From contig NZ_CP041091.1 of the NCBI RefSeq assembly GCF_006494815.1, positions 4,292,501 through 4,356,500 of the forward strand: a DNA stretch of 64,000 nt, written 5' to 3'. A program made the translations under genes and the position numbers. How positions within the stretch are numbered: the first letter of the stretch is position 1; each line of letters opens with the position of its first letter. Below the pieces are notes generated by a model that searched no databases, was not told the DNA's origin, and saw only the letters and a program-made list of their open reading frames with translations. Source of the stretch: Nocardioides sambongensis. GTDB lineage: Bacteria; Actinomycetota; Actinomycetes; Propionibacteriales; Nocardioidaceae. Positions 1,565-24,758 of the stretch are shown one piece after another.

Positions 1565-1581
1565 TCGTCCGGATCGCGCGC

Positions 1582-1611
1582 GAGGCCCCCGGGACGACAC
1601 CCGGGGGCCTC
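1582..1611 (+). terminator. Strong hairpin downstream of hbhA
   Basis: A perfect 12-bp stem (GAGGCCCCCGGG at 1582-1593 paired with 1600-1611) with a 6-base loop, 18 bp after the hbhA stop. There is no T-run, which is usual for actinobacterial terminators. It probably separates hbhA from the DUF2516 gene or lowers read-through. Confidence 0.7.
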
Positions 1612-1656
1612 GTCGCGTCGTTCCCGGTCGCAGATGCCCGCTAGGATCGAGCCACC

Positions 1657-1956
1657 ATGAACAACGGTTTCGTCACGCCGATCGCTGACGTGGAGTTCTG
1701 GGTCAACGTCGGCATCTACTACGTGCTGCTGATCGCCAAGATCTACGCGTTCGCCAACTCCCTGCTCTACTCCGGGGAGTCCTACGACGCTGCCGGCAAG
1801 CTGAACAAGGTGACCTGGACGATCCTGCTCGGGGTCGCCGTGGTGCTGCAGTTGGTCCCGCTGCCGCTCTCCATCATCAACCTGGCGATGACCGTGGTCG
1901 CGCTGGTCTACCTCGCCGACGTCCGCCCGGCGCTGGCCGGGCTACGGCGTCGTTGA
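1657..1956 (+). CDS. DUF2516 family small membrane protein (Rv0476-like)
   Basis: 99 residues from an ATG at 1657. Three hydrophobic segments are visible, at roughly residues 14-38, 52-70 and 72-90, and the C-terminus is basic. Length, topology and position after an hbhA homologue match the DUF2516 family (Rv0476 in M. tuberculosis). Its function is unknown; a role linked to the neighbouring surface protein is only suggested by conserved gene order. Its last 15 bases overlap the 3' end of the convergent rml fusion gene. Confidence 0.75.
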   Translation: MNNGFVTPIADVEFWVNVGIYYVLLIAKIYAFANSLLYSGESYDAAGKLNKVTWTILLGVAVVLQLVPLPLSIINLAMTVVALVYLADVRPALAGLRRR

Positions 1957-3383
1957 CCCGTCTGCGCTCTCCTCGCGCAGATACGCCACCAGGGCCTGGT
2001 CGGCGTCGGTCGGGGTGAAGCCGGTCGCGGTGAGCTTGTCGAGCGCCAACAGGCTGTGCAGCGGGCGGGGCGCGAGGTCCTTGCCGGCGCCGTACTCCTC
2101 GGTGGTGACGGGGGTGACGTCGGCGGCGTCGCGGCCGGAGAGTTCGAAGACCCGGCGCGCGATCTCGGCCCACGATCGGGCGGGGCCGCCGTTGGTGGCG
2201 TTGTAGAGCCCGTACGGCGCGCGCGCGTCGACCAGGTGCCGGGTGGCGCGGGCGAGCTCGGAGGTGAAGGTGAGCCGGCCGACCTGGTCGTCGACGACGC
2301 CGGGGGAGACGCCGCGTCCGGCGAGGTTGCGCATGGTGCGGACGAAGTTGTTGCCGTCCCCGATCACCCACGAGGTGCGCAGCACGTAGTGCCGGTCGCT
2401 CTGCTGGACCGCGAGGTCTCCGGCGGCCTTGGTCTGGCCGTAGACGCCGAGCGGGCAGAGCGGGTCGTCCTCGCGGTGGCCGCCGGGCTTGTGGCTGCCG
2501 TCGAAGACGTAGTCGGTCGAGTAGTGGACCAGGGTCAGGCCGTGCATGTCGGCGACGCGGGCCAGCGCGGCCGGCGCAGCGGCGTTCGCGGCCCACGCGG
2601 TCGTCCGGCCGTCGGTCTCGGCGCGGTCGACGGCGGTGTAGGCGGCAGCGTTGAGGATCAGGTCATACTCCGGCCACGGCCACGCGGCGAGCGCCGCAGG
2701 GTCGGTGAGGTCCAGCTCGTCGAGGTCGACCTGGTCGGCGTCGGGCCAGAGCGCGGCCAGGGCCCGTCCGAGCTGTCCGCGGCACCCGGTGATCAGCGTC
2801 CGGCGCGGTCGGACCGGCTCGACGTCCTCGAGGCGCGGGTTGAGCTGGTCCTTCGCGGAGACCTCGACCTCGGGGGAGTCCAGGGGATCGGCCAAGCGAT
2901 CGCGGCGGACTCGTCGGCGAGGTGCAGGGCGGGATAGCTGATCCCGGGTCGCCAGTGGTCGTTGACCAGGTAGGAGTAGAGGGTGCCGTCCTCGAGCGCC
3001 TGGTAGGAGTTCCCGACCCCGCGTGGCACGTACACCGCGGTGCCGGGGTCGAGCTCGATGCTGAACGTGGCGCCGAACGATGTGCCCTCCCGCATGTCCA
3101 CCCAGGCCGCGAAGACCCGCCCGGTGGCGACCGAGACGAACTTGTCCCACGGCTCGGTGTGGATACCGCGAGTGGCGCCGCGGCGGGCGTTGAACGACAT
3201 GTTGTTCTGCACCGGACCGAAGTCGGGCAGCCCGAGCGCGACCATCTTCTCCCGCTGCCAGTTCTCCTTGAACCAGCCGCGGTCGTCGTGGTGGACCGGC
3301 AGGGTGACGACCAGGAGCCCGGGGACCGGGGTCTCGGTGACGGTCAGGTCGGCGGCGCCGCTCGCGGTCGCTGCGTCGTCCAT
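1942..3383 (-). CDS. Bifunctional dTDP-4-dehydrorhamnose 3,5-epimerase / reductase (RmlC-RmlD fusion), frameshifted
   Basis: The first ~165 residues (ATG at 3383) are an RmlC cupin that epimerises dTDP-4-keto-6-deoxyglucose; GWFKENWQREKM, NARRGATRGIHTEPWDK and YVPRGVGNSYQAL are visible. The rest is RmlD, an NADPH reductase of the SDR fold, with GCRGQLGRAL near its start, STDYVFDGS, and YGQTKAAGD carrying the YxxxK pair. Together they would convert the RmlB product to dTDP-L-rhamnose. Fusions of this type are known in actinobacteria. The two halves lie in different frames: one base is missing in the G run at 2883-2886, and restoring it gives a single 480-residue protein. The start lies 3 bases from the rmlB stop, so the two are coupled. 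Confidence 0.85.
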
Positions 3384-10570: not shown

Positions 10571-11475
10571 GCGTCGTCGGCGTCCTTGGCGGCAGCGGGT
10601 TCGTGGGCGCACACGTGGTGCGCGCGCTCGAACGGGATGGAGTCGAGGCGCGGATCGTGAAGTCACCGCGGCTCAGTACCTCTGGCCGCGACCTCGCGGC
10701 GGTGACGGCAGACCTCGACCGCCCTGAACGAGCCGGCGTAGTGCAGGAGCTGCGCGAACGGCTGCTCGGCTGCTCGGCAGTGGTCAACGCCGCCGGCCTA
10801 GCGACTGCCACCGCTCACGGTGACGACCTGTTCGGCGCCAACTCGCTGCTTCCCGGAGTTGTCGCGCGGGCGCTGTGTAGTGACGTTCGCTTGGTCCACG
10901 TCAGTTCCGCCGCCGTGCAGGGTCGACGCGCACCACTTGACGAATCGGAGGTCTATGAGCCATTTAGCCCGTACTCCGCCTCGAAGGTCGTTGGCGAACA
11001 GATCATGCTCAGCTCCCACAGGAACGCCGTCTGTTATCGACCGACGTCGGTACACGGACCCGGGCGGGCGGTGACCGAGCGGCTCGCACGGTTGCTGGGC
11101 AGCCCGGCCGCTTCCGTCGCAGGTACTGGTGACGACCCAACCCCGCAAGTCCTAGTCGAAAACGTCGGAGATGTGGCGAAGTTCCTCGCGCTGGTCCCGT
11201 CGCCGGTGCCTCGGATAGTCCTCCACCCTTCGGAGGGTCTGACGACTTCGGAACTAGTCCGGCGACTCGGCGGTCGGGAGCCACGTCACGTGCCGGTCTC
11301 CGTAGCCCGAGCCGTCATTGTCTCCGCACGGACGGTAGGCAGCCGGAGCGCCCGTGCCGCAGGAGAGGCGCGCCGGCTCGAGATGTTGTGGTTTGGTCAG
11401 GCTCAAGAGCCTGGCTGGCTTGAGGGACGCTGGAGCGCTCCCCAGTCGTTAGAAGCGTGGAAGGAACTGAGATGA
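10567..11475 (+). CDS. NAD-dependent epimerase/dehydratase, probable UDP-4-keto-sugar reductase
   Basis: 302 residues. The N-terminal VVGVLGGSGFVGAHVVRAL is the nucleotide-binding loop of extended SDR enzymes; VHVSSAAVQG and YSASKVVGEQ (YxxxK) supply the active site, followed by YRPTSVHGPG. Its location between a WbpL/WbuB pair and capF suggests the WbpV/WbpK role, reducing the 4-keto product of the WbpM-like enzyme to UDP-QuiNAc or UDP-D-FucNAc. That role comes from context only. Its start overlaps the previous stop by 4 bases and its stop overlaps the next start by 4. Confidence 0.75.
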   Translation: MSVVGVLGGSGFVGAHVVRALERDGVEARIVKSPRLSTSGRDLAAVTADLDRPERAGVVQELRERLLGCSAVVNAAGLATATAHGDDLFGANSLLPGVVARALCSDVRLVHVSSAAVQGRRAPLDESEVYEPFSPYSASKVVGEQIMLSSHRNAVCYRPTSVHGPGRAVTERLARLLGSPAASVAGTGDDPTPQVLVENVGDVAKFLALVPSPVPRIVLHPSEGLTTSELVRRLGGREPRHVPVSVARAVIVSARTVGSRSARAAGEARRLEMLWFGQAQEPGWLEGRWSAPQSLEAWKELR

Positions 11476-12590
11476 GGGTCGGGATCACCGGGGGCTTCGG
11501 CTTCCTCGGCTGGCACACGTCGTGCCGGCTGCAGGCTGTGCACGGCGTAGAGGCCGTGCGACTGGGCCGTGGCGACTTCGCCGACCCCGAGCGCCTGGCT
11601 GCTGCGCTGACCGGGGTCGACACGGTGCTGCACATCGCCGGGATCAACCGGGCCGACACCGAGGAGACGGTCGAGCAAGGCAATGTGGACCTTGCGGAGA
11701 CCCTGGTCGAAGCCCTGCGTGCCAACGATCGGCCCGTCGATGTCGTCTACGCCAACTCCGTGCAGGCCGACCTGAACAACGCCTACGGCCGCGGCAAGGC
11801 TCAAGCGGCGGGTCTCCTGGCTCGGTCGGCACACGCGACCGGTGGACACTTCGCGGACCTCCTGCTGCCCAACTTGTACGGCGAGCACGGCAGACCGGGC
11901 TACAACTCATTCGTGGCAACGTTCGCCCATGAGGTGGCCGCGGGCCGCACGCCGACCGTGAGTGGTGACCGCGAGATCCCGCTTCTGCACGCCCAGGACG
12001 CAGCGGCCGCACTGATTGCGGCCGCCGGCAGCGACGTGCGGGAGACAATCCCAGCCGAGGCCGTCAGAATCAGCCGCGTGTTGGAACTGTTCGAGGAGTT
12101 CTACGCGCTTTACCACCAGCGCGGTGAGGTACCCGATATCTCGACACCGCTGCTGCGCAACTTGTTCAACACCTACCGGGCGGCGGCGTTCCCCGAGATG
12201 TGGCCGCTGTCGGCGCAGGTGCACGCGGACAACCGAGGAGATCTGTTCGAGACTGTCCGCGCTCACGGTGGTCCAGGCATGGCGTTTATGTCGACCACGC
12301 TACCCGGCCAGAAGCGCGGCGAGCACTACCACCTGCACAAGGTGGAGAGGTTCTTCGTGGTGAAGGGCGAGGCGGAGATCGAACTGCGCCAGCTGTTCCA
12401 CGACGAGGTCGTCCGTTTCCGTCTGAGCGGGGACACGCCGTCATTTGTCGACATGCCCACCCTGTGGGTGCACAACATTCGTAATGTCGGCGACACGGAG
12501 CTCGTCACGATGTTCTGGGCGGACCAGTTGCTCGACCCTGTCAACCCGGACCAGTACCCCGAGACGATTGCCCAGGAGGCATCCGCATGA
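11472..12590 (+). CDS. capF: UDP-2-acetamido-2,6-dideoxy-L-hexulose 4-reductase/3-epimerase (CapF/FnlB)
   Basis: 372 residues from an ATG at 11472 (ATGA overlap). The N-terminal SDR domain starts GITGGFGFLGWH and contains HIAGINRADTEE and NLYGEHGRPGYNSF. The C-terminal ~110 residues are a cupin with GQKRGEHYHLHKVERFFVVK, whose His residues bind the metal. This SDR-cupin architecture is diagnostic for CapF/FnlB, the second enzyme of UDP-L-FucNAc synthesis. Capsule polysaccharides of Staphylococcus aureus types 5 and 8 use the same CapEFG route. capG follows with an ATGA overlap. Confidence 0.92.
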   Translation: MRVGITGGFGFLGWHTSCRLQAVHGVEAVRLGRGDFADPERLAAALTGVDTVLHIAGINRADTEETVEQGNVDLAETLVEALRANDRPVDVVYANSVQADLNNAYGRGKAQAAGLLARSAHATGGHFADLLLPNLYGEHGRPGYNSFVATFAHEVAAGRTPTVSGDREIPLLHAQDAAAALIAAAGSDVRETIPAEAVRISRVLELFEEFYALYHQRGEVPDISTPLLRNLFNTYRAAAFPEMWPLSAQVHADNRGDLFETVRAHGGPGMAFMSTTLPGQKRGEHYHLHKVERFFVVKGEAEIELRQLFHDEVVRFRLSGDTPSFVDMPTLWVHNIRNVGDTELVTMFWADQLLDPVNPDQYPETIAQEASA

Positions 12591-13702
12591 AGGTCATGAC
12601 CGTCGTCGGCACGCGCCCGGAGATCATCCGTCTGGCGCGGGTGATCGACCGTCTGGACTCGACTCCTGGCATCGAGCACGTGTTGGTGCACACCGGGCAG
12701 AACTACGACCACTCGCTCAACCAGGTCTTCTTCGACGACCTCGGCCTGCGGGCCCCCGACCACTACCTCGGCGTCGACACCAGCTCGCTGGGCGCGGTCC
12801 TCGGCGGGGTCCTTGTCGGCACGGAGAAGGTCCTGCTCGAGGAGCAGCCGGACGCCCTGCTGGTGTTGGGTGACACCAACTCCTGCATCGCGACGGTGAT
12901 GGCGAAGCGGATGCGGGTGCCCACCTTCCACATGGAGGCTGGCAACCGCTGCTTCGACGAGAACGTGCCGGAGGAGACCAACCGTCGCCTCGTCGACCAC
13001 GTCGCGGACTTCAACCTTGCCTACACCGAACACGCGCGCCGCAACCTGCTCGCCGAGGGCCTGCACCCGCGCCGGATTGTGGTCACCGGCTCACCTATGC
13101 GTGAGGTGTTGAGTACGTATCGTGAGAACATTGAAAGGTCAACCGTTCTTGAGCAGCTCTCGCTCGCTCCCAAGAAGTACTTTCTGGTCAGTGCGCACCG
13201 CGAAGAGAATGTAGACTCGGCCCCGCGCTTGGTGCAGTTGATCGATTGCCTCAAAGCCGTCCATCGAGAGTGGCAACTGCCGGTGATCGTTTCCACGCAC
13301 CCCCGAACCCGAAAGCGACTTGCACAAGTTTCGCTGGATACCGGTGCTGACATACGTTGGATGGAGCCGTTCGGCTTCCATGACTACAACAATCTCCAAA
13401 AGAACGCCGCGTGTGTACTCTCCGACTCCGGCACGATCGCCGAGGAATCGTCGATTCTGGGATTCCCGGCACTAACTCTGCGTGACTCGATTGAGCGGCC
13501 CGAAGCACTTGACGCCGGATCGATTGTGATGACTGGTCTGGACGCCGCTGATGTTGTCCGTACCATCGGCGTACTGCTGCGTGAGGAATCAACGTCGATT
13601 CCGCAAGGGTACGACATTGAGAATACGTCCCAGAGGGTCGTGCGTTTCATACTGTCGACCACCAAGCGTCACAAGCAATGGGCCGGGGTCCGAGAGTTGT
13701 GA
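12587..13702 (+). CDS. capG: UDP-N-acetyl-L-talosamine 2-epimerase (CapG/FnlC), UDP-GlcNAc 2-epimerase fold
   Basis: 371 residues, ATG at 12587. The non-hydrolysing 2-epimerase fold is clear: MTVVGTRPEIIRLARVI, HTGQNYDHSLNQVFF, VLGDTNSC, FHMEAGNRCFDENVPEETNR, SAHREENVDS and LSDSGTIAEESS. The segment after HMEAGNRC distinguishes FnlC/CapG types from plain WecB. It yields UDP-N-acetyl-L-fucosamine, the final step of the CapEFG route. From about codon 165 (near 13080) the DNA shifts to lower-GC codon use that continues through the next two genes, so this gene spans a compositional boundary. Confidence 0.9.
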   Translation: MKVMTVVGTRPEIIRLARVIDRLDSTPGIEHVLVHTGQNYDHSLNQVFFDDLGLRAPDHYLGVDTSSLGAVLGGVLVGTEKVLLEEQPDALLVLGDTNSCIATVMAKRMRVPTFHMEAGNRCFDENVPEETNRRLVDHVADFNLAYTEHARRNLLAEGLHPRRIVVTGSPMREVLSTYRENIERSTVLEQLSLAPKKYFLVSAHREENVDSAPRLVQLIDCLKAVHREWQLPVIVSTHPRTRKRLAQVSLDTGADIRWMEPFGFHDYNNLQKNAACVLSDSGTIAEESSILGFPALTLRDSIERPEALDAGSIVMTGLDAADVVRTIGVLLREESTSIPQGYDIENTSQRVVRFILSTTKRHKQWAGVREL

Positions 13703-14898
13703 CTAGATCGCTGCGGGTATGGGTGGCAACAGACGTAACCGTTCATCGCGACAGTCGGGGTCGATTTAGAGCCAACCATAATGCCGCAAGCTTTGCTGCT
13801 TGGGCGCCGTTCGTGGCCGCATTTGGCTCGATAACTGTCGTTGCACGTCTCGATCCCACTGTTTCCGACGACGGTCCTCTCGTTGACGGGGATGGAGTAG
13901 AGGTAGAGACCCTGCCGCGATATCAGGGCCTCCGTGGCCTTGTCTTAACACTCCCGCGATTGGTACTCGCGGTGTCTCGAATCGGATCTAAGGCCGACGT
14001 CTTTATAGGACGCCCTGTAGAACCTCTGGCTCTGTTGCTGTTTGGACGTAGTTTCATGGCCGGAGCTAGATATATCGCGTTTATGGCCACTGACCCCGCT
14101 TCAATTGGCGCTGCCTATTTTGGCGGAGAGTCAAGAATGGGTCGCCTGTTTGGAAGCTTGGCGACCCTCTTTGCCCGGGCAATCGTCCGGCGCTCGGTGG
14201 GAGTCGTATACGTTTCGCAGGAATGGTTGCAGGCGCGATATCCGGCACCCATCGGGGTCCCCGTGTTAGCCAGATCCAACGTGGTTCTCGGTGATGAGGC
14301 GTATGTAGATGCTCCGCGATCTCTAGATCTATCTCGCCCGATTCGGCTTTGCAGTATTGGCGCGATGAACGGAAAGATCAAAGGGCACGACGTTCTCATC
14401 GAAGCGACCCAGATTCTCAATGGACTTGGCTTGAAAACCACCCTCTCCTTAATAGGAGATGGACCGCGAATGGCTGAGCTCGCGAATATCTCAGCCCATC
14501 GAGGCATAAGAGGTGACGTAAATTTTCTGGGGCAGGTTCACGCTCCCGAGCGGGTGCGCGAGATACTCGATGAATCAGATATATACTTGTCGGGAAGTTA
14601 CTCTGAAGGCCTGTCCCGTGCGATGGTGGAGGCTATGGCGCGCGCCCTCCCAGTAGTCTCGACTGACGCCGGTGCTGTAGGTGAACTCATTGAGAACCAG
14701 TACATTGTGGCGCCTGGCGATGCCACGGCTATTTCTGGCAAGGTCGCAGCCCTGGTCGAGAACAGCGTCCTGTACGAGTCCGCTTCCCGCGCCAATCTCG
14801 CATGCGCAAAGAATGTCGGCGCTCTGGCCTCCCCGGGTCGCCTAGCCAACTTCCTGCGCTCGGTGACCGAAGGTTCGTCGGGCAAGTGCGGGCGTTGA
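13699..14898 (+). CDS. GT4-family glycosyltransferase
   Basis: 399 residues from a GTG at 13699 overlapping the capG stop by 4 bases. An ATG 21 bases upstream, at 13678, is an alternative start. The C-terminal half carries the GT-B donor site: IRLCSIGAMNGKIKGHDVLIEA, SLIGDGPRMAELANI, VNFLGQVHAPERVREIL and the EGLSRAMVEAMARALPVVS segment with the conserved E-x7-E pattern. Acceptor and donor cannot be predicted. Codon use is much less GC-biased than in the first operon genes. It is one of only two clear glycosyltransferases in the locus. Confidence 0.85.
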   Translation: MTRSLRVWVATDVTVHRDSRGRFRANHNAASFAAWAPFVAAFGSITVVARLDPTVSDDGPLVDGDGVEVETLPRYQGLRGLVLTLPRLVLAVSRIGSKADVFIGRPVEPLALLLFGRSFMAGARYIAFMATDPASIGAAYFGGESRMGRLFGSLATLFARAIVRRSVGVVYVSQEWLQARYPAPIGVPVLARSNVVLGDEAYVDAPRSLDLSRPIRLCSIGAMNGKIKGHDVLIEATQILNGLGLKTTLSLIGDGPRMAELANISAHRGIRGDVNFLGQVHAPERVREILDESDIYLSGSYSEGLSRAMVEAMARALPVVSTDAGAVGELIENQYIVAPGDATAISGKVAALVENSVLYESASRANLACAKNVGALASPGRLANFLRSVTEGSSGKCGR

Positions 14899-14917
14899 AT
14901 ATCGAGGACGTTCTGTC

Positions 14918-16168
14918 TTGAAGTTGCGTTCTAGCCTGTCGCTTCTGGACCAGATGGTGGCGAGTGCGAGCAACATGGCCTCGGTTCTCGCTTTGGCCGC
15001 GGCATACAGTTCGGACGAGTTCGGTCTATTCGCGACCGTATATGCGGTCATGACCCTAGCCTTAGGCGTGACGCGAGCATATCTTGGCCTGCCTATTGCC
15101 CTCGGAGCGAGTTTATCGCGGGTTGAGCAAGGTGTGCTGTATGGGAGTTCTGTCGCTGCGGCAATCTATATCGCTGCGGTCGCAGCGTCTGGGGTCCTGG
15201 TACTCGGTATCGCAACCTCCACTTCTGCTACGGGTGTATCTATCGTGGTGCTGATGAGTGTGGCGGTGCCCATACTTCTCGTGCAGGATCTCGCGAGATT
15301 CCATGCGGTCGCGACTAGAAGGACCGGCGTTGCTGTGGCTTCTGACAGCCTTTGGCTGATGGGCGCGCTCATCTTATGGGTGAGTGGGAGTTCGCTCTCT
15401 CCAGTGACTGCGACTCTTCTTTGGATTCTGATCGCTGCTGGCTCTATGGTCGTAGCGGTTGGATGCCTGACTCCGAGTGTCGACTGGTCGGGCGGGTGGC
15501 GAACCCTCAGACCGGGGCGCGGTGCCCGCGAAGCCTCGGTCGCGCAAGTTGCAATGTCAGGCGGCGTTACCGTGGTCACGGCGCTAGTTGTAGCTCCCGT
15601 CTATGGCGCGGGTGCGGTGGGTGCGCTCCGGGGTGCTGGAACCGTGCTTGGGCCACTGAACACGCTTATGACGTTCCTTGACTTTGGAGTTCTGGCGGCG
15701 CTTGCCCGACGCTCACGTTCGAAAGATGTCCGCGCTCTTGTATTGGTCATGTTGGTCTTGCTAGGCGCACTCGTCCTGTGGGCTCTTATCCTGCTGATGC
15801 CTTCGTCTCCAGTTGGCCGAGCCATGTTTGCGGATAGTTGGCCAATGGTGCGAGATATCCTCCCGATCACCTGTGTCGAGTACGGATTTCTGCTTTTTAT
15901 TGCGACGGCCGGGATCTTCTTTAAGCTGCGTGATCAAGGTCGGCAGATTGTTGTCGCGAAGATACTGTCGGTGGTTGTAGTGTTGATTGGTGTCGGGTGT
16001 GCCGCAGTCTCAGGGCTTACCTTTATTGCGATCCCGCTGGTTCTGGCGGGGCGGGGCTCGTCTCAGCCGTATACCTTTTGGTACGAGTCATTCATCAAAT
16101 GGCGAGGGATAAGCAGGGGCTCGCGGATCGCGAAACTTGTTGAACTCCGGTCGGACGGTCGCGCCTGA
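14918..16168 (+). CDS. Wzx-like polysaccharide flippase (MATE/PST family)
   Basis: 416 residues from a TTG at 14918 with GAGGAC about 8 bases upstream. Ten or more hydrophobic segments alternate with short charged loops. The first ~30 residues (LLDQMVASASNMASVLALAA, then EFGLFATVYAVM) resemble the start of O-antigen/teichoic flippases of the Wzx/PST group, which move lipid-linked repeats across the membrane. Position at the end of the glycan operon supports the role. Sequence conservation in this group is poor, so the call rests on topology, the N-terminal pattern and context. Low-GC composition suggests transfer. The nested IS block begins 154 bp downstream. Confidence 0.72.
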   Translation: MKLRSSLSLLDQMVASASNMASVLALAAAYSSDEFGLFATVYAVMTLALGVTRAYLGLPIALGASLSRVEQGVLYGSSVAAAIYIAAVAASGVLVLGIATSTSATGVSIVVLMSVAVPILLVQDLARFHAVATRRTGVAVASDSLWLMGALILWVSGSSLSPVTATLLWILIAAGSMVVAVGCLTPSVDWSGGWRTLRPGRGAREASVAQVAMSGGVTVVTALVVAPVYGAGAVGALRGAGTVLGPLNTLMTFLDFGVLAALARRSRSKDVRALVLVMLVLLGALVLWALILLMPSSPVGRAMFADSWPMVRDILPITCVEYGFLLFIATAGIFFKLRDQGRQIVVAKILSVVVVLIGVGCAAVSGLTFIAIPLVLAGRGSSQPYTFWYESFIKWRGISRGSRIAKLVELRSDGRA

Positions 16169-16322
16169 TAATGAACCGCCCTGGGTCTGATGGAGGCTAG
16201 GACCTCCCTTCGAACTCTGCTGGCGGTATGCCGGACCGAGTGGGAGCCGCCCCGATGGGCTACCTGGCTCGCGGGTGTCGTCGCCGGCAAGCACGGTCGT
16301 GGCGACGCGACGCTGGTTTATG

Positions 16323-16780
16323 GGCTCTTCCTACCTGAGGTGGGGGTGAGTCAGGCAGCCGCCGATGAGCAGCATTCGTAGTCGGTAATGATCGCGGTTG
16401 CGGAATCCGCGGGCGACGCGGCGGTGGAGCTCGAGAGGCCGTTGATCGCCTCCGTGCCGCCGTTGCTGGCACGGCCGGCGTCGATATAGGCCAAGAATGC
16501 TTCGCGCCACTGCTTCAGAGTCTTGCCGTGTGGCTTGATCTCCGGGATCGGGCAGGTCGGCAGCGACCGGATGAGCTCTTCGGCGGTCCGGCGTCTCTGG
16601 GCCGGGTTCTTCGTTGTAGGCCGATCGAAGCTTCTGTGCGCACAGCCAGGCGACGAGGACCTCGTCGTGGCGTCCGTCGGCAGCGATCGCGCGTTCGAGT
16701 CGTGCGCGTTGGCGGTCAGTGAACTTCTCGGCGCCGCAGCGCAGGATCGTGCGGATGCCGTAGAGCTGGTCGTCGATGGC
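16323..16780 (-). pseudogene. C-terminal piece of the ISL3 transposase
   Basis: Read on the minus strand it starts at the IS256 target site with AIDDQLYGIRTILRCGAE and continues FTDRQRARLERAIAADGRHDE, then, after frame changes, ELHRRVARGFRNRDHYRLRM near the end. These are typical ISL3-family C-terminal sequences. At least two frame changes occur after EEPGPE. The first half of this fragment is also present at 18648-18834 because of the IS1634 duplication. It is inactive. Confidence 0.75.
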
Positions 16781-16982
16781 GGTCAAGTCCCGGGTAGTGG
16801 TGTAGCGCTGCGTTCCTTCGGTCGGGGTGGTTAGGCGGTCAGTGCGGGCAGGTCGTCGGCTCCGATCTCGGGTTCGGGGGTGGGGACGATGGTGACGCGG
16901 GAACGGGCCAGGACGTCGAGTCCGAGGTAGCGGCGGCCTTCGGCCCATTCGTCGGTCTGTTCGGCCAGCACGGCGCCGACCA
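16594..16982. repeat. Left copy of a 389-bp direct repeat flanking the IS1634 element
   Basis: Identical, as far as I can read, to 18648-19036 at a constant offset of 2054 bp. It contains part of the ISL3 transposase, one IS256 target-site copy (16773-16780) and the left end of the IS256 element with its transposase C-terminus. It abuts the IS1634 left end. Interpreted as a long target-site duplication. Position 16593 also matches 18647, so the boundary is uncertain by one base. Confidence 0.85.
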
Positions 16983-18647
16983 CCTGAGTTGCACAGACTT
17001 AGTGGGTCACGCGGTCGATGAGTTCTTGGGCCTCGGGCGGGATCTGTGGTTGGGCGGCGATCGACTGGCCGGCGACGCTGACTGTGATCTCCTGCAGCGG
17101 GCGCAGGGTCTGGACGAGCTTCTTGATGCTGACGCCGCTGCGTTGCTGGAGGTAGCGCGCGACGGCGAGCGCGGCGAACACGATGGTGAGGTGGGCTTCG
17201 ATCGATTCGCGCTTGTGGTGGAACATCGGCCGGGCGCGTAGGTCGGTCTTGGACATCCGGAACGACTGCTCAACGCGCCACAGGTCGTGGTAGCTGCCGA
17301 TGACCTCGTCGGGGTCCATCACGCCTGCGGGGATGTTGGTGACGTAGCCCTTCAGCCCGACCAGCCGACGTGCCCGCGTCAAGGACGCCTCATCGAGTGT
17401 CTTGGTGCCGTTGGTGGTCTTGACGAACCGCGGTGTCCGGGCGGTCTTCTCGCCCGCGATGACTTCCTTGGCGCGGTTCTCCTGCAGGGTCAGCGTCTTG
17501 CCGTCACGGGCGGCGCGTTTGGCCGAGTAGGCCCACACCGCCCGCCAGGATCCCGGGTGCTGTTCCGGGTCCCAGACCGGCTCGCGCTTCTTCTTCGTGT
17601 CGTTCTCGATGCTGCGTCGGTTCTTCGGGGTGATCGTGTCGATGAGTTGCCCGTCGCTGAGGGCGTCGCCGTGCCAGCGGAAGTGGGACTCCAGATCGAC
17701 CGGCGCCTTGGTCACCCGGGAGCCGACGATGAACCGCAGACCGGCTTGGTCGAGTTCGCGCAGGTTGGTCGCGGACAGCATCCCGGCATCAGCGACGACA
17801 GCCATGTCGCTCACGCCGTGGCGCTTCTGGAAGGCCTTGATGATCGGGATCATCGTGAGCGTCTCGGCCTTGTTGCCCTCGAAACAGCCGATCTCGAGCG
17901 GGAAACCGCGCCGGTCGACCAGGAGCCCGACGACGACCTGGGGATCGACACGGCGTTCTTTGGAGTAGCCGACCTTCCTGAGGTCGTCTTCCTTCTCGGC
18001 CTCGAAGTACAGCGTCGTCACGTCATAGAGACACAGCGACACGTCACCCCACGCGGTGGCATCGCGGAAGCAGGCGGCCGCGATCTGGTCGCGGTAGCCG
18101 CGCTGTCCGGCACGGCGCAGGGTGGCGCTGAAGGTGTTGCGGTGCGCAGGCGTGAGGCCGAGCTCGCTCAGCACCCGCCCGGCATCCAGCATCGACGTCG
18201 GCTCGACGATCCGGGCCAGCACGAGCTGGAAGAACGCCTCGTCGTTGATCACACCGAACCCCAATGTCTGCCACGCCGACTCGATGACCGCGACCAGCAG
18301 CCGCGAGGCCTTGGCCTGCACGATCGTGGCGCGCGGATCCTGCTCGGGCTCCAGTCCGAGGTCGAGAACGCCTTGGCCTTCCTCGATCTTGCGGCGCCCG
18401 ACCTGCATCAACGCCGCGAGCTCGGCTTCGGTGTGCGCGGAACCCAAATGCTCGATGACGACGTCGCGTCGATGTTCCCGGCGGGCGATCTGCACGGCCG
18501 TCGCGCCCGAGGCCGTCTTCACCTTCCGCAGGAACACCACCCCGGAAACGTAGCCGCTTAGTGTGTCACCACCGACACCCGCACCGGCCCTGACCAGCGC
18601 AAACGCTGAGCCGGCCCCAGAATCACGCCCGACCTGTGCAAGTCAGG
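16983..18647 (-). mobile_element. IS1634-family insertion sequence (about 1665 bp)
   Basis: It is bounded by imperfect inverted repeats CCTGAGTTGCACAG (16983-16996) and, reading inward from 18647, CCTGACTTGCACAG: 13 of 14 match. It contains one transposase gene on the minus strand and nothing else. It is inserted inside the IS256 element near the IS256/ISL3 junction. The flanking 389-bp direct repeats fit the unusually long and variable target duplications described for the founder IS1634 of Mycoplasma mycoides. Confidence 0.85.
16999..18540 (-). CDS. IS1634-family transposase
   Basis: 513 residues from a GTG at 18540, intact. It is a DDE transposase of the IS4-like superfamily. The N-terminal KVKTASGATAVQIARREHRR and IEHLGSAHTEAELAALM are typical of IS1634/IS1549-like proteins. 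Acidic residues in the expected contexts are CLYDVTTLYFEAE, MAVVADAGMLSATNL and YHDLWRVEQSFRMSKTDL. The intact frame and identical flanking repeats suggest a recent, possibly active, insertion. Unlike its neighbours it has no frame break. Confidence 0.93.
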   Translation of the reverse strand: MVFLRKVKTASGATAVQIARREHRRDVVIEHLGSAHTEAELAALMQVGRRKIEEGQGVLDLGLEPEQDPRATIVQAKASRLLVAVIESAWQTLGFGVINDEAFFQLVLARIVEPTSMLDAGRVLSELGLTPAHRNTFSATLRRAGQRGYRDQIAAACFRDATAWGDVSLCLYDVTTLYFEAEKEDDLRKVGYSKERRVDPQVVVGLLVDRRGFPLEIGCFEGNKAETLTMIPIIKAFQKRHGVSDMAVVADAGMLSATNLRELDQAGLRFIVGSRVTKAPVDLESHFRWHGDALSDGQLIDTITPKNRRSIENDTKKKREPVWDPEQHPGSWRAVWAYSAKRAARDGKTLTLQENRAKEVIAGEKTARTPRFVKTTNGTKTLDEASLTRARRLVGLKGYVTNIPAGVMDPDEVIGSYHDLWRVEQSFRMSKTDLRARPMFHHKRESIEAHLTIVFAALAVARYLQQRSGVSIKKLVQTLRPLQEITVSVAGQSIAAQPQIPPEAQELIDRVTH

Positions 18648-19036
18648 TCTCTGGGCCGGGTTCTTCGTTGTAGGCCGATCGAAGCTTCTGTGCGCACAGC
18701 CAGGCGACGAGGACCTCGTCGTGGCGTCCGTCGGCAGCGATCGCGCGTTCGAGTCGTGCGCGTTGGCGGTCAGTGAACTTCTCGGCGCCGCAGCGCAGGA
18801 TCGTGCGGATGCCGTAGAGCTGGTCGTCGATGGCGGTCAAGTCCCGGGTAGTGGTGTAGCGCTGCGTTCCTTCGGTCGGGGTGGTTAGGCGGTCAGTGCG
18901 GGCAGGTCGTCGGCTCCGATCTCGGGTTCGGGGGTGGGGACGATGGTGACGCGGGAACGGGCCAGGACGTCGAGTCCGAGGTAGCGGCGGCCTTCGGCCC
19001 ATTCGTCGGTCTGTTCGGCCAGCACGGCGCCGACCA
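18648..19036. repeat. Right copy of the 389-bp direct repeat flanking the IS1634 element
   Basis: Same sequence as 16594-16982. In this copy the IS256 part is continuous with the rest of the IS256 transposase to the right, so it shows the pre-insertion arrangement on that side. The copies appear identical, which argues for a young duplication. Confidence 0.85.
18827..18834. repeat. 8-bp target duplication of the IS256 element, left copy
   Basis: TCGATGGC, repeated at 20250-20257 on the other side of the IS256 element. Joining the flanks through one copy restores the ISL3 reading GYKNAI-DDQLYGIRTIL. IS256-family elements typically make 8- to 9-bp duplications. Confidence 0.85.
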
Positions 19037-20249
19037 GACGCACGATGGCCTCGCGGGTGGGGAAGATCCCGACCGCGACGGTGCGGCGACGGATCTCCTT
19101 GTTGAGCCGTTCGGTGGGTTGTTGGACCAGATCTGGGTCCAGATCTCCTTCGGGTACGCGTTGAACGACAGCAGGTCCGCGCGGGCCCGGTCGAGGTGGT
19201 CGTGAACCTCGGGGAGCTTGGGCTCGACGTAGTCCAGGAGTCGGTCGAACTGGGCGTGCACGGCGGTCGCGTCGGGCTGGGCGTAGACGCTGTGCAGCAT
19301 CGCGTTGACCGCCGGCCACATGCTCTTCGGGGTGACGCCCATCAGGTTGAACGCGTAGTGGGTCCGGCACCGCTGCCAGGCCGCTCCAGGAAGGTTCGCT
19401 GCGATCGCCTCGACCAGGCCGCGGTGGGCATCGGAGGTGACCAGCCGTACACCGGACAGGCCACGAGCGACCAGGTCGGCGAAGAATTCGTTCCACGCCG
19501 CACCGGTCTCGGCGGTGGCCACGCGCATGCCGAGGACCTCACGGTGCCCGTCGCTGTTCACCCCGGTCGCGAGCAGCACGACCGCGTTGATCACCCGCCC
19601 TCCTTCGCGGACCTTCATCGTCAGTGCGTCCGCGGTGACCAAGGTGAACGGCCCCGCCTCGTCGAGCGGTCGGTGGCGCCAGTCCTCGACGATCGCGTCG
19701 AGCTCTTCGGCCATCCGCGAGACCTGCGACTTCGACAGGGAGTCGATCCCGAGGGTCTTCACGAGCTTGTCCATCCGACGCGTGGACACGCCGGCGAGGT
19801 AGCAGTCGGCGACCACGGTGATCAGCGCGGTCTCTGCTCGTTTGCGGCGCTCGAGCAGCCACTGGGGGAAGTAGGTGCCCTTGCGGAGCTTGGGGATCGC
19901 GACATCGATGGTCCCGACCCGGGTGTTGAGGTCGCGGTGGCGGTAGCCGTTGCGCTGGCTCGTGCGGCCCGGGGTAGGCCGCCCGTACTCGGCACCGACC
20001 ACCGCGTCGGCGTCAGCGGACAGCAGTGCGTTGATGATCGTTTGCAACAACGTGCGCATCAGATCCGGGCTGGCTTCGCCGAGCAGGCGTGCTGGGTCGA
20101 CAATGTGTGGAGCGGTCATCGTGATGACTCCGTTCGAGGATTCTGTGGAAGGTTGACTCGAAGGATCACGCGGTGGCCGCGCCTGCGTCCGGCGTACACG
20201 CCGGTGACGATCTCGGCGACCGCGCTACACCACTATCGGGGACTCAACT
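18835..20249 (-). mobile_element. IS256-family insertion sequence (about 1415 bp)
   Basis: Terminal inverted repeats of about 28 bp lie at 18835-18862 and 20222-20249. They share GTCCC and the 14-bp inner core TAGTGGTGTAGCGC, with about five mismatches further out. It is flanked by the 8-bp duplication TCGATGGC and inserted in the ISL3 transposase gene. It carries one transposase on the minus strand. A second copy of its left end lies at 16781-16982 because of the later IS1634 insertion. Confidence 0.88.
18885..20119 (-). pseudogene. IS256-family (mutator) transposase, one-base frameshift
   Basis: About 411 residues if the frame is restored. The DDE triad is visible as D164 (VTADALTMKV), D230 (RLVTSDAHRG) and E337 (NNPTERLNKEIRRRT). 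The frame breaks just before the third catalytic residue, at the G run 19116-19118, where one extra base would give NNPTERLNK. This may be a sequencing error rather than real inactivation, because every other conserved block is intact. The stop is at 18885. Upstream flanking sequence to 20249 is the element's terminal region. Confidence 0.88.
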
Positions 20250-20916
20250 TCGATGGCGTTCTTGTAGCCGTGGAACGGGTCCAGGGTGGCCACCTCAACG
20301 CCGCCAGTGGACTCCTCGCCGCGCTCCGCGAGCCAGTCGCTGTACGCCTTGCCCGACCGGCCCGGGACCAGGTCGAGCAGCCGCGCCTCCGGATTCCCGT
20401 TCCCGTCGGGGGTGAGGTCGACCATCCCGGTCAACAGCTTGGGTCCACGGCCGCCGTCGGCGATGGGGAACTCCGACACGTAGTGCCACACCTGCTCGTC
20501 CACGCCGAGCCGCTTCACGCCGGCGAACCGAGACTCGTCGTCAGCCATCTCCCTCAGAAGCGGCTCGATCGAGGTCCACACCGTGTTCCACGTCGTCCCC
20601 AACTGGCGAGCGATCCCGCGGATCGAGGCGTGCCCGCGGCGGATCTGGCTGATCGCCTACCAGCACGCGTCAACGAGCCTCACCTCGCGCCGGCCGTCGT
20701 GATCGAAATCAACAGAGGTGACGTGATGGCAGCGCGCAGCGATACGCGCCGCGCGGAGTCGTCGTGCCCGACCAAGGCGTGGCTGTGCGCAACCACACCG
20801 CACTCCCCGGAACCCCATCGGTCCTGGCGGCGACTCGTAGGCTCGGACACACGTCGAGGCCCTTCGGAACGGTGTGCTTGGTCGCCACTGATCCTGTGCG
20901 CCTCGACGTCCTTCAC
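20250..20916 (-). pseudogene. N-terminal and central piece of the ISL3 transposase
   Basis: The minus-strand frame at 20250-20602 reads IARQLGTTWNTVWTSIEPLL, then VKRLGVDEQVWHYVSEFPI, LTGMVDLTPDGNG, LLDLVPGRSGKAYSDWL and VEVATLDPFHGYKNAI. This is the catalytic core of ISL3 transposases up to the IS256 insertion point. Upstream of 20602 a TAG replaces an expected Trp codon within ACW-AISQIRRGHAS, and the zinc-finger region beyond (around ECGVVAHSH) is decayed and frame-shifted. The gene is therefore broken by mutation as well as by insertion. Confidence 0.75.
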
Positions 20917-20976
20917 CCCGACATCACGCCGTCACCCGGCGCGCCGCTCACCCCCCACCGGAACTCAGAAGAGCCG

Positions 20977-22365
20977 CTAATTGGGCAGCCCCCTGAATCG
21001 GCTGTAAGCCCGTTGCACCCGGGGTGACCTTCTCCCTGAATGGGTGGCGCTCATCAGGTTGCTGGTGCGACGGCGATTCCAAGCGAGAACGATATACACG
21101 GCGGCTAGAACCAACAGGCGCTGTCCTGTGCGCGACATGTATCCGAAAGTGCCGACCCAGACCAGGTCCAGCAGGCCAGCAGTTGCCAGCACGGTTGCGG
21201 TCAGTGTGAGGATCTGCATCGGACTGCTGACGAGTTGGCTTTGCGCATTGGACAAGCGTCTATCAAGAAAACGGACAAAGTAGGAAAGGGGAATAATTAT
21301 AAGAAGCGAAAGTAGTCCGAAGTTGAATATAAGTTCGCCATGGACTAGCGCGGCCTCGGAGTGTCCAGTACCCACCAATTCGGGACGGAATATCTCCGTA
21401 AGTTCGGCGCCAAACCCAATGGGCTTTTCGGGCCAAAGGGAACGCGGGAAGAAGAGCACTGCGGTTGCGTAGAAACTCGATCCCTCGCCGTGGGGCAACT
21501 GGCCAGCGGTTGACAGCTGAAGAAGTTGGGCGAACCGCTCGAAGGGCCACACGACAGATTCTAGGCCAGTTTCAACACCGCCCAAGGTTGCCGTTCTTTC
21601 TGCGCGGTTCGCTGCGAGTAGGCTCAAGCCGACCGGAAGTGTGACGGTGACCAGAGACTTCGCGAACCGGCCGCTCTGTCGAGTAATTGCCACGGCAACA
21701 ACCATTGCTAGCCCGCCCAAGACGAGACGCCCGCCGCCACTAAACATCGTCGCAACGTAAAAACTGCAAGCAACCGCTGCAAATGCGAAGCGCCAGAGGG
21801 ATAGTTTCGCATTATGCAGCGCCGTAACTGCCACTAGGGCGGCACCGCTGAATGCGGTCGCTCCGGCGAGGGTGGAACTGCCTAGGCCGAAGATTCGCTC
21901 AAGCGAGTATCCGGCTACTATTAGAGCGACCCCTAGATTCGTCGACCAGATCGCAACTGGTTCCGCGACGCCGACACTCGCAGCGAAGCCAAGCTCACGT
22001 TGAGGTTCGCTGGTGAGGTGGTACATGATCACTTGGGAAAAAAAGACCAATATGATGGCGCCTGGAATATCTCGAGGCTCTGCGAAGGAGATTCGTTCCG
22101 TCGCTACATAAACGGCTGGAAAGTAGACAAACGTAACCAATCCGAGCATGAACACGCCAGTAGCTGTTATGTTGGCGCCGCCATGCATCCAGAATGAGCT
22201 GAATGCATGTGTTCCTCCCAGCAGCGCTAGTACGACTGCGGCGTCCTCTGCCGACCCCAATAGACCATTAAGATAGGCGCCCGTCAGGACGATCCCTGCG
22301 ATGCACCAAAGAATGGTTGCTACGGTGGATGCGCCATGCTCTCTGAGCATGCCGCCCGTTGGCAT
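20977..22365 (-). CDS. Wzy-like polysaccharide repeat-unit polymerase
   Basis: About 462 residues from an ATG at 22365 (a GTG directly upstream at 22368 is possible). Eleven or more hydrophobic segments. The segment FFPRSLWPEKPIGFGAEL followed by GHSEAALVHGELIFNFG matches the periplasmic loop of oligosaccharide repeat-unit polymerases (pattern P-R--WP-KP ... G--NFG). It would join lipid-linked repeats outside the membrane. Its stop codon is one base outside the ISL3 inverted repeat, so the native C-terminus may have been altered by that insertion. It is translationally coupled to the CapK-like gene upstream. Low-GC composition. Confidence 0.75.
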   Translation of the reverse strand: MPTGGMLREHGASTVATILWCIAGIVLTGAYLNGLLGSAEDAAVVLALLGGTHAFSSFWMHGGANITATGVFMLGLVTFVYFPAVYVATERISFAEPRDIPGAIILVFFSQVIMYHLTSEPQRELGFAASVGVAEPVAIWSTNLGVALIVAGYSLERIFGLGSSTLAGATAFSGAALVAVTALHNAKLSLWRFAFAAVACSFYVATMFSGGGRLVLGGLAMVVAVAITRQSGRFAKSLVTVTLPVGLSLLAANRAERTATLGGVETGLESVVWPFERFAQLLQLSTAGQLPHGEGSSFYATAVLFFPRSLWPEKPIGFGAELTEIFRPELVGTGHSEAALVHGELIFNFGLLSLLIIIPLSYFVRFLDRRLSNAQSQLVSSPMQILTLTATVLATAGLLDLVWVGTFGYMSRTGQRLLVLAAVYIVLAWNRRRTSNLMSATHSGRRSPRVQRAYSRFRGLPN

Positions 22366-23671
22366 CACTGAACGAAGAGGGCGTGCTTACCCGCCCGCGT
22401 CAGTGCTGGTTGATCCACCTGCAGGAACGTGACTGCGGTTCGGTCGTAAGTCGGATGGTCCCTTCCCAGCTCTAGGGAGAAATGTTGTTGGACGCTTTGC
22501 AGGTCCAAGGGGCGTGTTGCAGTAAGGAGGATTTCGACTGAGTTCTGCACTTGGCGAAATTGGACCGCAGTGATTCCTGGCATGGTCTTCAGTATGTGAA
22601 CTGGAAGTATGGCCGATAAGTGAAGACGCCCCCGTTTGAGTCCCTGAGGGTGATCGTATCTTGGGATCGTCCGGTGACAGCCGATAGTCGGAGGGCGTTG
22701 CCGCGTTCAACATCGATTCCCACGGCTCGATCCCCGACAGCGTAGTTTATCAGCGGAAATAGTCGGGGATTGAGCGTTGTTACTTGGATATCATCAGTTT
22801 CAGTCAAGTGAAGTATGCAACTTGCCCACAGGACCTGCATATTCCAAGTACTCTCGCGCGACACTGCCATGTCGCCAACTTCGGCGGCGCCATATTCGTT
22901 GATTAGCGGGGCCCCAAAGACTCGTGAGATAGTTTCTGCGTCCGCTTGGCTTACAGTTTCAGCCGTTGCCACTACTGCACGGATGCTTGGAAGCCTGGAT
23001 CCTGGGTGGTTGTTCTCGATGTGCCGAGCAAGCCTGAATAGAGCGGAAGTGTATCCGACCAGATATGCCGGTGTTGCATTCTGATACGTGCGAAAATGTC
23101 GTTCCAATGCTTCATTGGACATGTCGTACGCGTTCAGTCGGGTGGCCCCGACTATTCGATCTGCGGCCGCCCTCTTAATTTGGGCGATCCGACTTCCGCC
23201 GAACAAATGGGAGTGCCCCCAGAGGTGGATGTAGGGGTCGAGCGGGCGGATTCCCCACCAGCCTCGGGCTGTATAGACATCGGCGTATATCGAGAAGAAG
23301 TCACGATCGCCACGCGGGTATCGGGTGGGAGTGCCCGTTGTTCCCCCGGTGGAGTATGCGGAAGTAATGCGCCCGTTTCGAAAGATCTCTTCAGAGTTGT
23401 CGACTATGTCGCGTTTGGTTAGAACCGGGAACGACGCAAGGTCGGCGATGACTTCAATCCGTGGGGGCAGCGCGTGCTTTGCTGCCCAGGACCTGTAGAA
23501 CGGGATCTCTTCAAGGCACGTAGTCCATGTTGCGTTGAATGCTGACAACTGGTACTGCTCAATACGGCCACGGTCCAGAAGGCCTTCGTAAAGCGCCGCT
23601 CGGCGCGAGATCTCGCTTTGACGACGGCTGAAGAGAGTTGCGCGGAATGCTCTCGCGTGAACGTTGGACAT
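22365..23671 (-). CDS. CapK-like (phenylacetate-CoA ligase-related) protein, one-base frameshift
   Basis: 435 residues if one base is restored. ATG at 23671 with GGGAGAA upstream. The adenylate-forming fold is visible: TEEIPFYR-type N-terminus, AYSTGGTTGTPTRYPR (phosphate loop), YLVGYTSALFRLARHIE, INEYGAAEVGDMAVS and the hinge VTGRSQDTI. After TYRPYF the frame breaks at 22603; adding one base gives YFPVHILKTMPGITAVQFRQ and then the normal C-terminal domain. CapK-like proteins are common in capsule and exopolysaccharide loci, but their substrate is unknown. It lies directly upstream of the Wzy-like gene with overlapping stop and start. Confidence 0.75.
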
Positions 23672-23813
23672 TTGCTTTTCTCCCAAGACCTCGACGGGTT
23701 TGCCTAAAAAAATCAAACCACCAAGGTGTGGCCTAGCTTGCGGGCGAGTGCGGAGGCCTGATCAGATACGTTTATTTGGGTCACGCTGTTGATGCAGTCG
23801 CATTGCGATGGCT

Positions 23814-24758
23814 CTACCTAGACTTCCTCTCGATTGTTTGTTGAAACCAGTCGACGGTGTGGCGCAGCCCTTCGGCTAGTTGCGTGGGCTCTATGCCTGG
23901 TATTAGCGAACGCAGAGCTTCATTCTCGGCTTGAGAGTGTGGGACGTCTCCGGGCCGCGGTTCGCGGAACTGTAATTGCACTGGGAATTCAAGTGCGGCC
24001 TGTAACTCGGCGATGAGTTGTGCAAGTGTGGTGTTTGTTCCGAAGGCGAGGTTCACTGGTTCTGGATGGCTTGTCCGTCGCTCCGCGGCGGATAGCAGCA
24101 CTTCGCAAACCGTCCCAACATAGGTGAAGTCTCGCGAGTTGCTGCCGTCACCGTTCACGAAGAGTGGCCGCCCATTTAGTGCGGCATCAATCCAAGTGGG
24201 AATTACGGCTGCGTAGACGTGGCCAGCGCGCTGTCCAGGCCCATAGACGTTGAAGAATCGGAACGCGAGCGTTTCGAAGCCGTAGGACTGCTGGAAGGCG
24301 AGTGTGTACTGCTCGGTCGCTAGTTTGCTGACGGCGTAGGGGCTCATCGGTCGGACCCACTCACGTTCGTTCTTCGGAAGCGCTGGGTTCATCCCGTATA
24401 CGGAACTGGAGGACGCGCACATCACGTGGGTGACGTCGGCACGACGGGCCCGATCAAGCAGGGTGAGAGTGCCGGTCGCATTGGCGTGGTGGCTCCGGAG
24501 GGGGTCCTTGATGCTGCGCGGCACGCTGCCGAGGGCGCCGAGGTGGACGATGGAGTCCACGCCCTTAACGGCCGACCCGACGGCTTCTTCATCGAGGAGT
24601 GATGCCTCTCGGAAATCCACGTCGAGGCCGTCGAGGTTGTCGCGGTATCCGTTGGACAGGTCGTCGAGGATACGGACTTCGTGTCCGGCCGCCAACGCCT
24701 CTCGCGCCAAGTTGTGGCCGATGAAGCCGGCGCCGCCGGTGATGAGGATCTTCTTCAA
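23814..24758 (-). CDS. NAD-dependent UDP-sugar 4-epimerase (TviC/WbpP-like)
   Basis: 314 residues from a TTG at 24758 preceded by GAAGGGAA. Motifs: [44 protein letters not shown] and YAVSKLATEQYTLAF (YxxxK), then FRFFNVYGPGQ. The SVPRSI-DP segment is characteristic of UDP-N-acetylhexosamine 4-epimerases such as WbpP/TviC. Together with the TviB-like dehydrogenase 34 bp upstream it could supply UDP-GalNAcA. A plain UDP-glucose 4-epimerase is the alternative. The 142 bp downstream, up to the CapK start, is AT-richer and holds nothing recognisable. Confidence 0.8.
   Translation of the reverse strand: MKKILITGGAGFIGHNLAREALAAGHEVRILDDLSNGYRDNLDGLDVDFREASLLDEEAVGSAVKGVDSIVHLGALGSVPRSIKDPLRSHHANATGTLTLLDRARRADVTHVMCASSSSVYGMNPALPKNEREWVRPMSPYAVSKLATEQYTLAFQQSYGFETLAFRFFNVYGPGQRAGHVYAAVIPTWIDAALNGRPLFVNGDGSNSRDFTYVGTVCEVLLSAAERRTSHPEPVNLAFGTNTTLAQLIAELQAALEFPVQLQFREPRPGDVPHSQAENEALRSLIPGIEPTQLAEGLRHTVDWFQQTIERKSR

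What the first reader, a model, noticed from the sequence alone, without database searches (positions are those of the whole stretch)
16594..19036. IS1634-family element flanked by identical 389-bp direct repeats
The element at 16983-18647 has its own 14-bp inverted repeats (13/14), and sequence from outside those repeats is present twice: 16594-16982 and 18648-19036, constant offset 2054, apparently without a mismatch. Removing the element and one copy restores both the ISL3 remnant and the IS256 end. Most transposases duplicate 2-14 bp. The IS1634 founder in Mycoplasma mycoides was described with unusually long, variable direct repeats. A comparable duplication in a high-GC actinobacterium suggests that the long-duplication mechanism is a family trait. 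How a DDE transposase makes such wide staggered cuts is not settled.
Basis: partly seen in the sequence, partly recalled or inferred. Interest (0 to 1): 0.78.

Follow-up and report, generated by a model that had tools for sequence, protein, structure and literature searches.

The report
Insertion sequence with long target duplications
A jumping DNA element duplicated 389 bases of its target when it inserted; this is a known habit of some of its relatives, and comparing 143 insertions suggests why: each end of the element seems to pick its own landing site.

Summary
It is a real target duplication. The other three copies of this element in the single-contig genome have 140-bp, 106-bp and no duplication. 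Three empty sites of relatives were compared, and each holds one copy of the segment. Long duplications in this family are already published, including in an actinobacterium (IS1549), with no model proposed as of 2008, so this is a new member of a known kind. The survey adds more. Of 143 insertions with clear ends, 77 have duplications of 11-738 bp, 19 exactly 5 bp, none 6-10 bp. Both edges of long duplications carry the same motif, CG|TSNNA, overlapping the TCNGA core of 5-bp insertions. A matrix from either edge recognises the other (AUC 0.80-0.81, p about 1e-20), and site qualities are uncorrelated. Copies without duplication carry the motif on both flanks. My reading: the two ends attack separate sites. 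Convergent attacks give long duplications, divergent ones losses, a shared site 5 bp. This fits the sequences but is not shown biochemically.

The parts
16594..16982 (.). left copy of the 389-bp target duplication (188 bp ISL3 remnant + 201 bp IS256 end)
   Evidence: identical to 18648-19036
18648..19036 (.). right copy of the 389-bp target duplication
   Evidence: identical to 16594-16982
16983..18647 (-). IS1634-family element, 1665 bp; one of four near-identical copies in the host genome
16983..16996 (+). terminal inverted repeat CCTGAGTTGCACAG
18634..18647 (-). terminal inverted repeat CCTGACTTGCACAG (reverse strand), 13/14 to the other
16999..18540 (-). transposase, 513 aa, DDE type (D173, D251, E424 invariant in the 29 aligned sequences; their catalytic role is inferred)
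   Evidence: NCBIfam NF033559 E 1.4e-119; alignment; Tn5 transposase is the best solved fold match
16592..16598 (+). target site at the 5' edge of the duplication: CG|TCTCT (junction after 16593); -2C, -1G, +1T and +2C match the clade motif, +5A does not
16978..16982 (-). target site at the 3' edge of the duplication, reverse strand: TC|TGGTC (the TC lies at 19037-19038); +1T and +2G match, -1G and +5A do not
18836..20249 (-). IS256-family element into whose end the IS1634 element inserted; only full-length match in the genome
16782..16982 (-). orphan 201-bp IS256 end produced by the duplication
   Evidence: 100% identical to bases 1-201 of the IS256 element, second place in the genome
18827..18835 (.). 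9-bp IS256 target duplication TCGATGGCG (other copy 20250-20258)
16331..16781 (-). ISL3-family transposase remnant (one part; outer boundary approximate)
20259..20602 (-). ISL3-family transposase remnant (other part; outer boundary approximate)

Best explanation
An IS1634-family DDE element of the long-duplication type inserted at the border of an IS256 copy and an ISL3 remnant and duplicated 389 bp of target. Shown by sequence: the duplication, its link to this element, and, across the clade, the shared motif at both edges. Inferred: in this clade the two element ends are usually not inserted in one concerted event. Each end attacks its own site of type CG|TSNNA, one on each strand. If the two attacks converge, the stretch between them is copied by strand-displacement synthesis and becomes a long duplication. 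If they diverge, the stretch is lost and no duplication is seen. If both ends use one symmetric TCNGA site, the result is the ordinary 5 bp. My confidence is about 0.97 that this is a real insertion-made duplication and about 0.6 for the two-site mechanism.
For: Own genome: the four copies have 389, 140, 106 and no duplication. Survey: of 143 insertions with clear ends, 77 are long (11-738 bp, median 81; 71 exact, 6 at 90-99.9% identity), 18 short (16 of exactly 5 bp, 2 of 3 bp), 28 have none and 20 had too little flank. Over all 143, 19 have exactly 5 bp and none has 6-10 bp; among the 126 with at least 300 bp of flank, 18 five-bp cases were seen against 0.8 expected. Both edges carry the same motif (n=77): -1G 50 and 40, +1T 33 and 38, +5A 37 and 37, against background G 0.32 and A/T 0.18; each binomial p is 1.7e-4 or smaller. 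A matrix trained on one edge recognises the other at AUC 0.80-0.81, p about 1e-20. It carries over between inverted-repeat groups of 41, 24 and 10 insertions at both edges; in a group of 2, one edge gave p 0.06 and the other 0.009. A matrix from the 5-bp sites peaks only at offset 0 of both edges, tested from -12 to +12 (p 6e-7, 1e-9). Site qualities at the two edges are uncorrelated (rho -0.01). The 24 strict no-duplication copies carry the motif on both flanks (p 9e-8, 7e-6). One of them, L102, lies between an integrase cut at profile position 140/172 and a DUF1508 frame that begins at profile position 8/48. Near-identical transposases L064 and L065 gave 94 and 5 bp. Empty sites: each of the 3 compared holds one copy.
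Against: The motif is weak at any single edge; the window copy has +1T at both edges but +5A at neither. Long copies (77) outnumber strict no-duplication copies (24); independent attack predicts equality unless losses are selected against or repaired poorly. No deletion was proven with an empty-site relative: in the rows listed none spans both flanks. Some no-duplication copies may come from recombination between copies; their sites are closer to the 5-bp consensus than those of long copies. Whether both ends attack one duplex or two sister duplexes cannot be told.
Confidence: 0.65

Rival explanations
1. Two ordinary 5-bp insertions of the same element at nearby sites on sister chromosomes, followed by unequal crossing-over inside the element, leave one long duplication and one deletion.
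For: It also predicts a 5-bp-type site at each edge and a matching deletion class, both seen.
Against: It predicts edges as canonical as true 5-bp sites. They are not: mean leave-one-out matrix score 4.2 for 5-bp sites against -2.25 for long edges (p 1.6e-7; p 8e-4 within the main clade); +4G 8 of 10 against 49 of 134, p 0.014. It also needs two nearby insertions for most copies.
Confidence: 0.08
2. The two ends attack two sister duplexes just behind a replication fork, giving a duplication on one sister and a loss on the other.
For: Short distances (median 81 bp), a motif at both edges, and a no-duplication class with the motif.
Against: Predicts equal numbers of duplications and losses; 77 against 24 were seen, though selection could explain that. 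Not tested directly.
Confidence: 0.2
3. One paired-end complex with a flexible or very wide spacing between its two active sites makes one concerted, staggered cut.
For: Both ends are normally paired in DDE transposition (established knowledge), and the best fold match is Tn5 transposase.
Against: Distances from 11 to 738 bp without clear 10.5-bp phasing (p 0.17-0.24); a distinct class at exactly 5 bp with nothing at 6-10; +5A at each edge, the symmetry mate of +1T, suggests a full 5-bp target core at each edge.
Confidence: 0.1
4. The repeat pre-existed, or is an assembly artefact.
For: Exact repeats can be artefacts of assembly; no reads were seen.
Against: The left copy includes an IS256 end whose only other 100% match is in the right copy. 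The same genome and many others show repeats of other lengths at the same element junctions. The 3 empty sites compared, of relatives' insertions, hold one copy each; no empty site was sought for the window copy itself.
Confidence: 0.02

Closest known systems
IS1549 (Mycobacterium smegmatis; Plikaytis 1998, paper not held, known here only through De Palmenaer 2008)
   Same: Actinobacterial IS1634-family element with long, variable direct repeats
   Different: No mechanism or edge motif is mentioned in the passages seen; direct sequence comparison with IS1549 was not done
IS1634 (Mycoplasma mycoides; Vilei 1999, paper not held)
   Same: Family founder with long, variable direct repeats
   Different: Its insertion sites were not examined here
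ISGka5 (Geobacillus kaustophilus, PMC8024623, passages seen)
   Same: IS1634 family
   Different: 6-bp duplication
Half-site (single-end) integration by HIV-1 integrase in vitro (PMC8742673, passages seen)
   Same: One end joined to one strand without the partner end
   Different: There described as aborting integration if it occurred in the cell; here I infer that two such events are combined into a stable insertion
Tn5 / IS50 transposase
   Same: Best solved fold match of the predicted transposase, E 1e-7
   Different: 14-15% identity; IS50 subgroup makes 8-9 bp duplications

Membership tests
IS1634 family | Transposase matches the family model | tested here: met
   NF033559 400 bits against a cut-off of 100
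IS1634 family | DDE motif with Y-(2)-x-(3)-E-(6)-K, the R of YREK mostly absent | tested here: met
   D173, D251, Y417, L420, E424, K431 invariant in 29 rows; absence of the R in most members, residue spacing of YREK recalled
IS1634 family | Size 1500-2000 bp, ends C-----YT | tested here: met
   1665 bp, ends CCTGAGTT / CCTGACTT; rule
IS1634 family | 5-6 bp AT-rich duplications (family norm) | tested here: not met
   389, 140 and 106 bp in this genome. The same source lists IS1549 and IS1634, two named members, as exceptions, so this does not exclude membership
Long-repeat members of the IS1634 family (IS1549/IS1634 type) | Long direct repeats that vary between copies | tested here: met
Long-repeat members of the IS1634 family (IS1549/IS1634 type) | Close sequence kinship to IS1549 itself | not tested
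   No record named IS1549 was fetched
IS4 family | Complete YREK motif | tested here: not met
   L420 stands in place of R

The most novel reading that the evidence does not exclude
A whole clade of DDE transposases normally inserts its two ends in an uncoupled way: each end makes a half-site attack at its own relaxed 5-bp-type target. Long duplications, losses and 5-bp duplications are then the outcomes of one reaction, and the long-standing puzzle of long repeats in IS1549/IS1634-type elements needs no unusually wide cut.
Probability: 0.5. Interest if true: 0.8.

Novelty: new member of a known kind. Interest (0 to 1): 0.6.

Why it matters
How a DDE transposase makes duplications of tens to hundreds of bp is a question from papers of 1998-1999, and a 2008 review states that no model had been proposed. 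My full-text searches listed no paper whose title or abstract start proposes one, but they cover open-licence papers only, and I looked at passages of five. If each end picks its own site, these elements are natural sources of half-site products, small deletions and tandem duplications, and the question becomes testable with a simple strand-transfer assay.

Tried and rejected
Helical phasing of duplication lengths (periods 10, 10.5, 11 at three length cut-offs) was tested. One of nine tests gave p 0.03, the other eight were above 0.1, so I do not claim it.

A single determinant in the transposase was considered. The long main clade has about 22 extra residues between D251 and E424, but rows without them also make long duplications (L136 307 bp, L138 23 bp), so I rejected it.

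Some apparent no-duplication copies turned out otherwise. Gapped comparison showed 4 of the 28 (L089, L119, L195, one copy in L169) to have imperfect long repeats; 24 remain. One of the 24, L153, has tandem-like repeats near the junction and was kept.

Empty sites for no-duplication copies: in the rows listed for L177 (8 of 47 records), L175 (8 of 28), L211 (12 of 32) and L201 (7 of 7) no relative spans both flanks. For L183 (47-bp duplication) none was seen in the 8 of 19 rows listed. Further candidate empty sites for L172 and L178 were listed but only three sites in all were fetched. For L151 I looked at the two truncated frames but did not test a homologue. The no-duplication copy in the host genome has, in its right flank, a diverged repeat of sequence 6.8-7.9 kb to its left; it does not abut the element on the left and was not counted.

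Rows dropped: 25 places without recognisable ends, and 9 of 152 with weak ends. The tree used 123 of the 143 rows (reading frame intact, at least 440 aa) and the quick method without bootstrap. Of 129 relatives found in genome contigs 80 were kept by the tool; of 41 plasmid records 23 were fetched as element loci. Many draft contigs end inside or at the element, so copies are missed.

Full report
Observation. The two 389-bp segments are identical and abut the element exactly. The element is 1665 bp with 13/14 terminal repeats and encodes a 513-aa transposase matching the IS1634 family model at 1.4e-119. The surroundings are nested: ISL3 remnants hold an IS256 copy with a 9-bp duplication, and the duplicated 389 bp span 188 bp of ISL3 remnant and 201 bp of that IS256 end. 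The genome has one full-length IS256 match, and its 201-bp end occurs a second time at 100% only in the left repeat. So the repeat was made when the IS1634 element inserted.

Other copies. The host genome (one contig) has four near-identical copies. Their duplications are 389, 140 and 106 bp, and none for the copy at C1:4181363-4183027, also not with about 9 kb of flank on each side. A second element, 66-71% alike in its best-matching protein stretches, has duplications of 60 and 47 bp.

Survey. Relatives came from a scan of one-genome-per-species contigs (80 of 129 kept), from searches of genomes (a match in 12 of 245, 23 of 394, and 38 of 38 genomes behind loci already fetched), and from plasmid records (41 with a match, 23 fetched, further copies). 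Ends were defined by the inverted repeats alone, not by the duplication. Of 152 distinct insertions with ends, 143 passed: 77 long (11-738 bp; 71 exact, 6 at 90-99.9% identity), 16 of 5 bp, 2 of 3 bp, 28 with none, 20 with short flanks. Over all 143, 19 have exactly 5 bp and none has 6-10 bp. Among the 126 with at least 300 bp of flank, exact lengths of 5 bp number 18 against 0.8 expected by chance, while 3-bp cases (2) are at chance level (2.6 expected). The 389-bp case is among the longest: 6 of 77 are this long or longer. Two long cases come from outside Actinomycetota, Persicobacter (406 bp) and Aliarcobacter (680 bp at 99.9%), with 31% and 29% identity to the window transposase.

Empty sites. 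For three plasmid insertions (147, 93 and 102 bp) a related plasmid lacking the element holds one copy of the segment, with the left-flank match and the right-flank match overlapping by about the duplication length: 143, 91 and 102 bp in the relatives.

Tree. In a tree of 123 transposases, the main clade of 101 rows holds 60 long, 17 none and 9 five-bp cases (the rest unknown or 3 bp), while a separate clade of five rows, three different proteins, has only 5 bp (SH-aLRT support only). Near-identical proteins give different lengths (L064 94 bp, L065 5 bp). Length is therefore not fixed by the transposase sequence within the main clade, but the tendency to make long ones seems to depend on the clade.

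Edges. Five-bp duplications read T-C-N-G-A: +1T 13 of 16, +2C 15, +4G 14, +5A 10. Long duplications carry, at both edges read inward, CG|TSNNA: -1G 50 and 40 of 77, +1T 33 and 38, +5A 37 and 37. A matrix trained on the 5-bp set scores the two edges above controls only at the exact junction. A matrix trained on one edge recognises the other (AUC 0.80-0.81, p about 1e-20), with no correlation of quality within an insertion. It also transfers between groups with different inverted repeats: 41, 24 and 10 insertions significant at both edges; in a group of 2 one edge was at p 0.06. A test for near-duplicate insertions removed none.

No-duplication copies. Of 28, four have imperfect long repeats on gapped comparison. 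The other 24 carry the 5-bp-type motif on both flanks (AUC 0.81 and 0.76). L102 lies between two truncated genes: an integrase cut at its C-terminal side, whose end I did not find in the 1.4-kb left flank by a simple motif scan in three frames, and a DUF1508 frame without its start. This is consistent with deletion but not proven.

Mechanism. The two edges look like two sites, each picked by the same rule. If two complete 5-bp insertions had recombined, long edges should be as canonical as 5-bp sites; they are clearly weaker (mean score -2.25 against 4.2; +4G 49 of 134 against 8 of 10). I therefore favour two separate single-end attacks with relaxed specificity, on opposite strands, and copying of the stretch between them. 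The +5A at each edge, the symmetry mate of +1T, suggests that the target core is still read as a 5-bp unit at each attack. Half-site integration by HIV-1 integrase in vitro is the nearest precedent (passages seen). The fold prediction (mean pLDDT 78.6) has Tn5 transposase as best solved match, so ordinary DDE chemistry is expected. Whether one duplex or two sister duplexes are attacked is open.

Known or new. Long variable repeats of IS1549 and IS1634, 8-514 bp, and the absence of a model were stated in 2008 (PMC2266710, passages seen). The phenomenon in a high-GC actinobacterium is therefore already known. The edge motif and the linked 5-bp, long and no-duplication classes were not in the passages I saw; my searches cover open-licence papers only, and the two founding papers are not held.

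Noticed in passing
L118 and L122 (host genome C1:665-667 kb and 680-684 kb): A second IS1634-family element in the host, 66-71% alike in its best-matching protein stretches, with 60- and 47-bp duplications, beside several broken copies at 680-684 kb.
   Followed up: partly
window 11457-24758: The nested insertion sequences sit between genes for epimerases, a UDP-GlcNAc 2-epimerase and a glycosyltransferase, probably surface polysaccharide synthesis; three of the seven proteins scanned had no Pfam match.
   Followed up: no
L201, 884-1378 (Pseudonocardia pBCI1-1): The 495 bp next to a no-duplication copy matches other plasmids while the sequence beyond matches a sister plasmid: possibly a one-ended or composite event.
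   Followed up: no
L047, L119, L195 (flanks of the element): Direct repeats of 455, 126 and 74 bp that do not abut the element on one side: damaged or unusual duplications.
   Followed up: no
L003, element 1501-3164: The 106-bp copy is one base shorter than the window element and its transposase match is split into two frames.
   Followed up: no
L090 (host genome C1:4172000-4191999): The no-duplication copy of the element lies beside a diverged repeat that also occurs 6.8-7.9 kb to its left, probably another insertion sequence.
   Followed up: no
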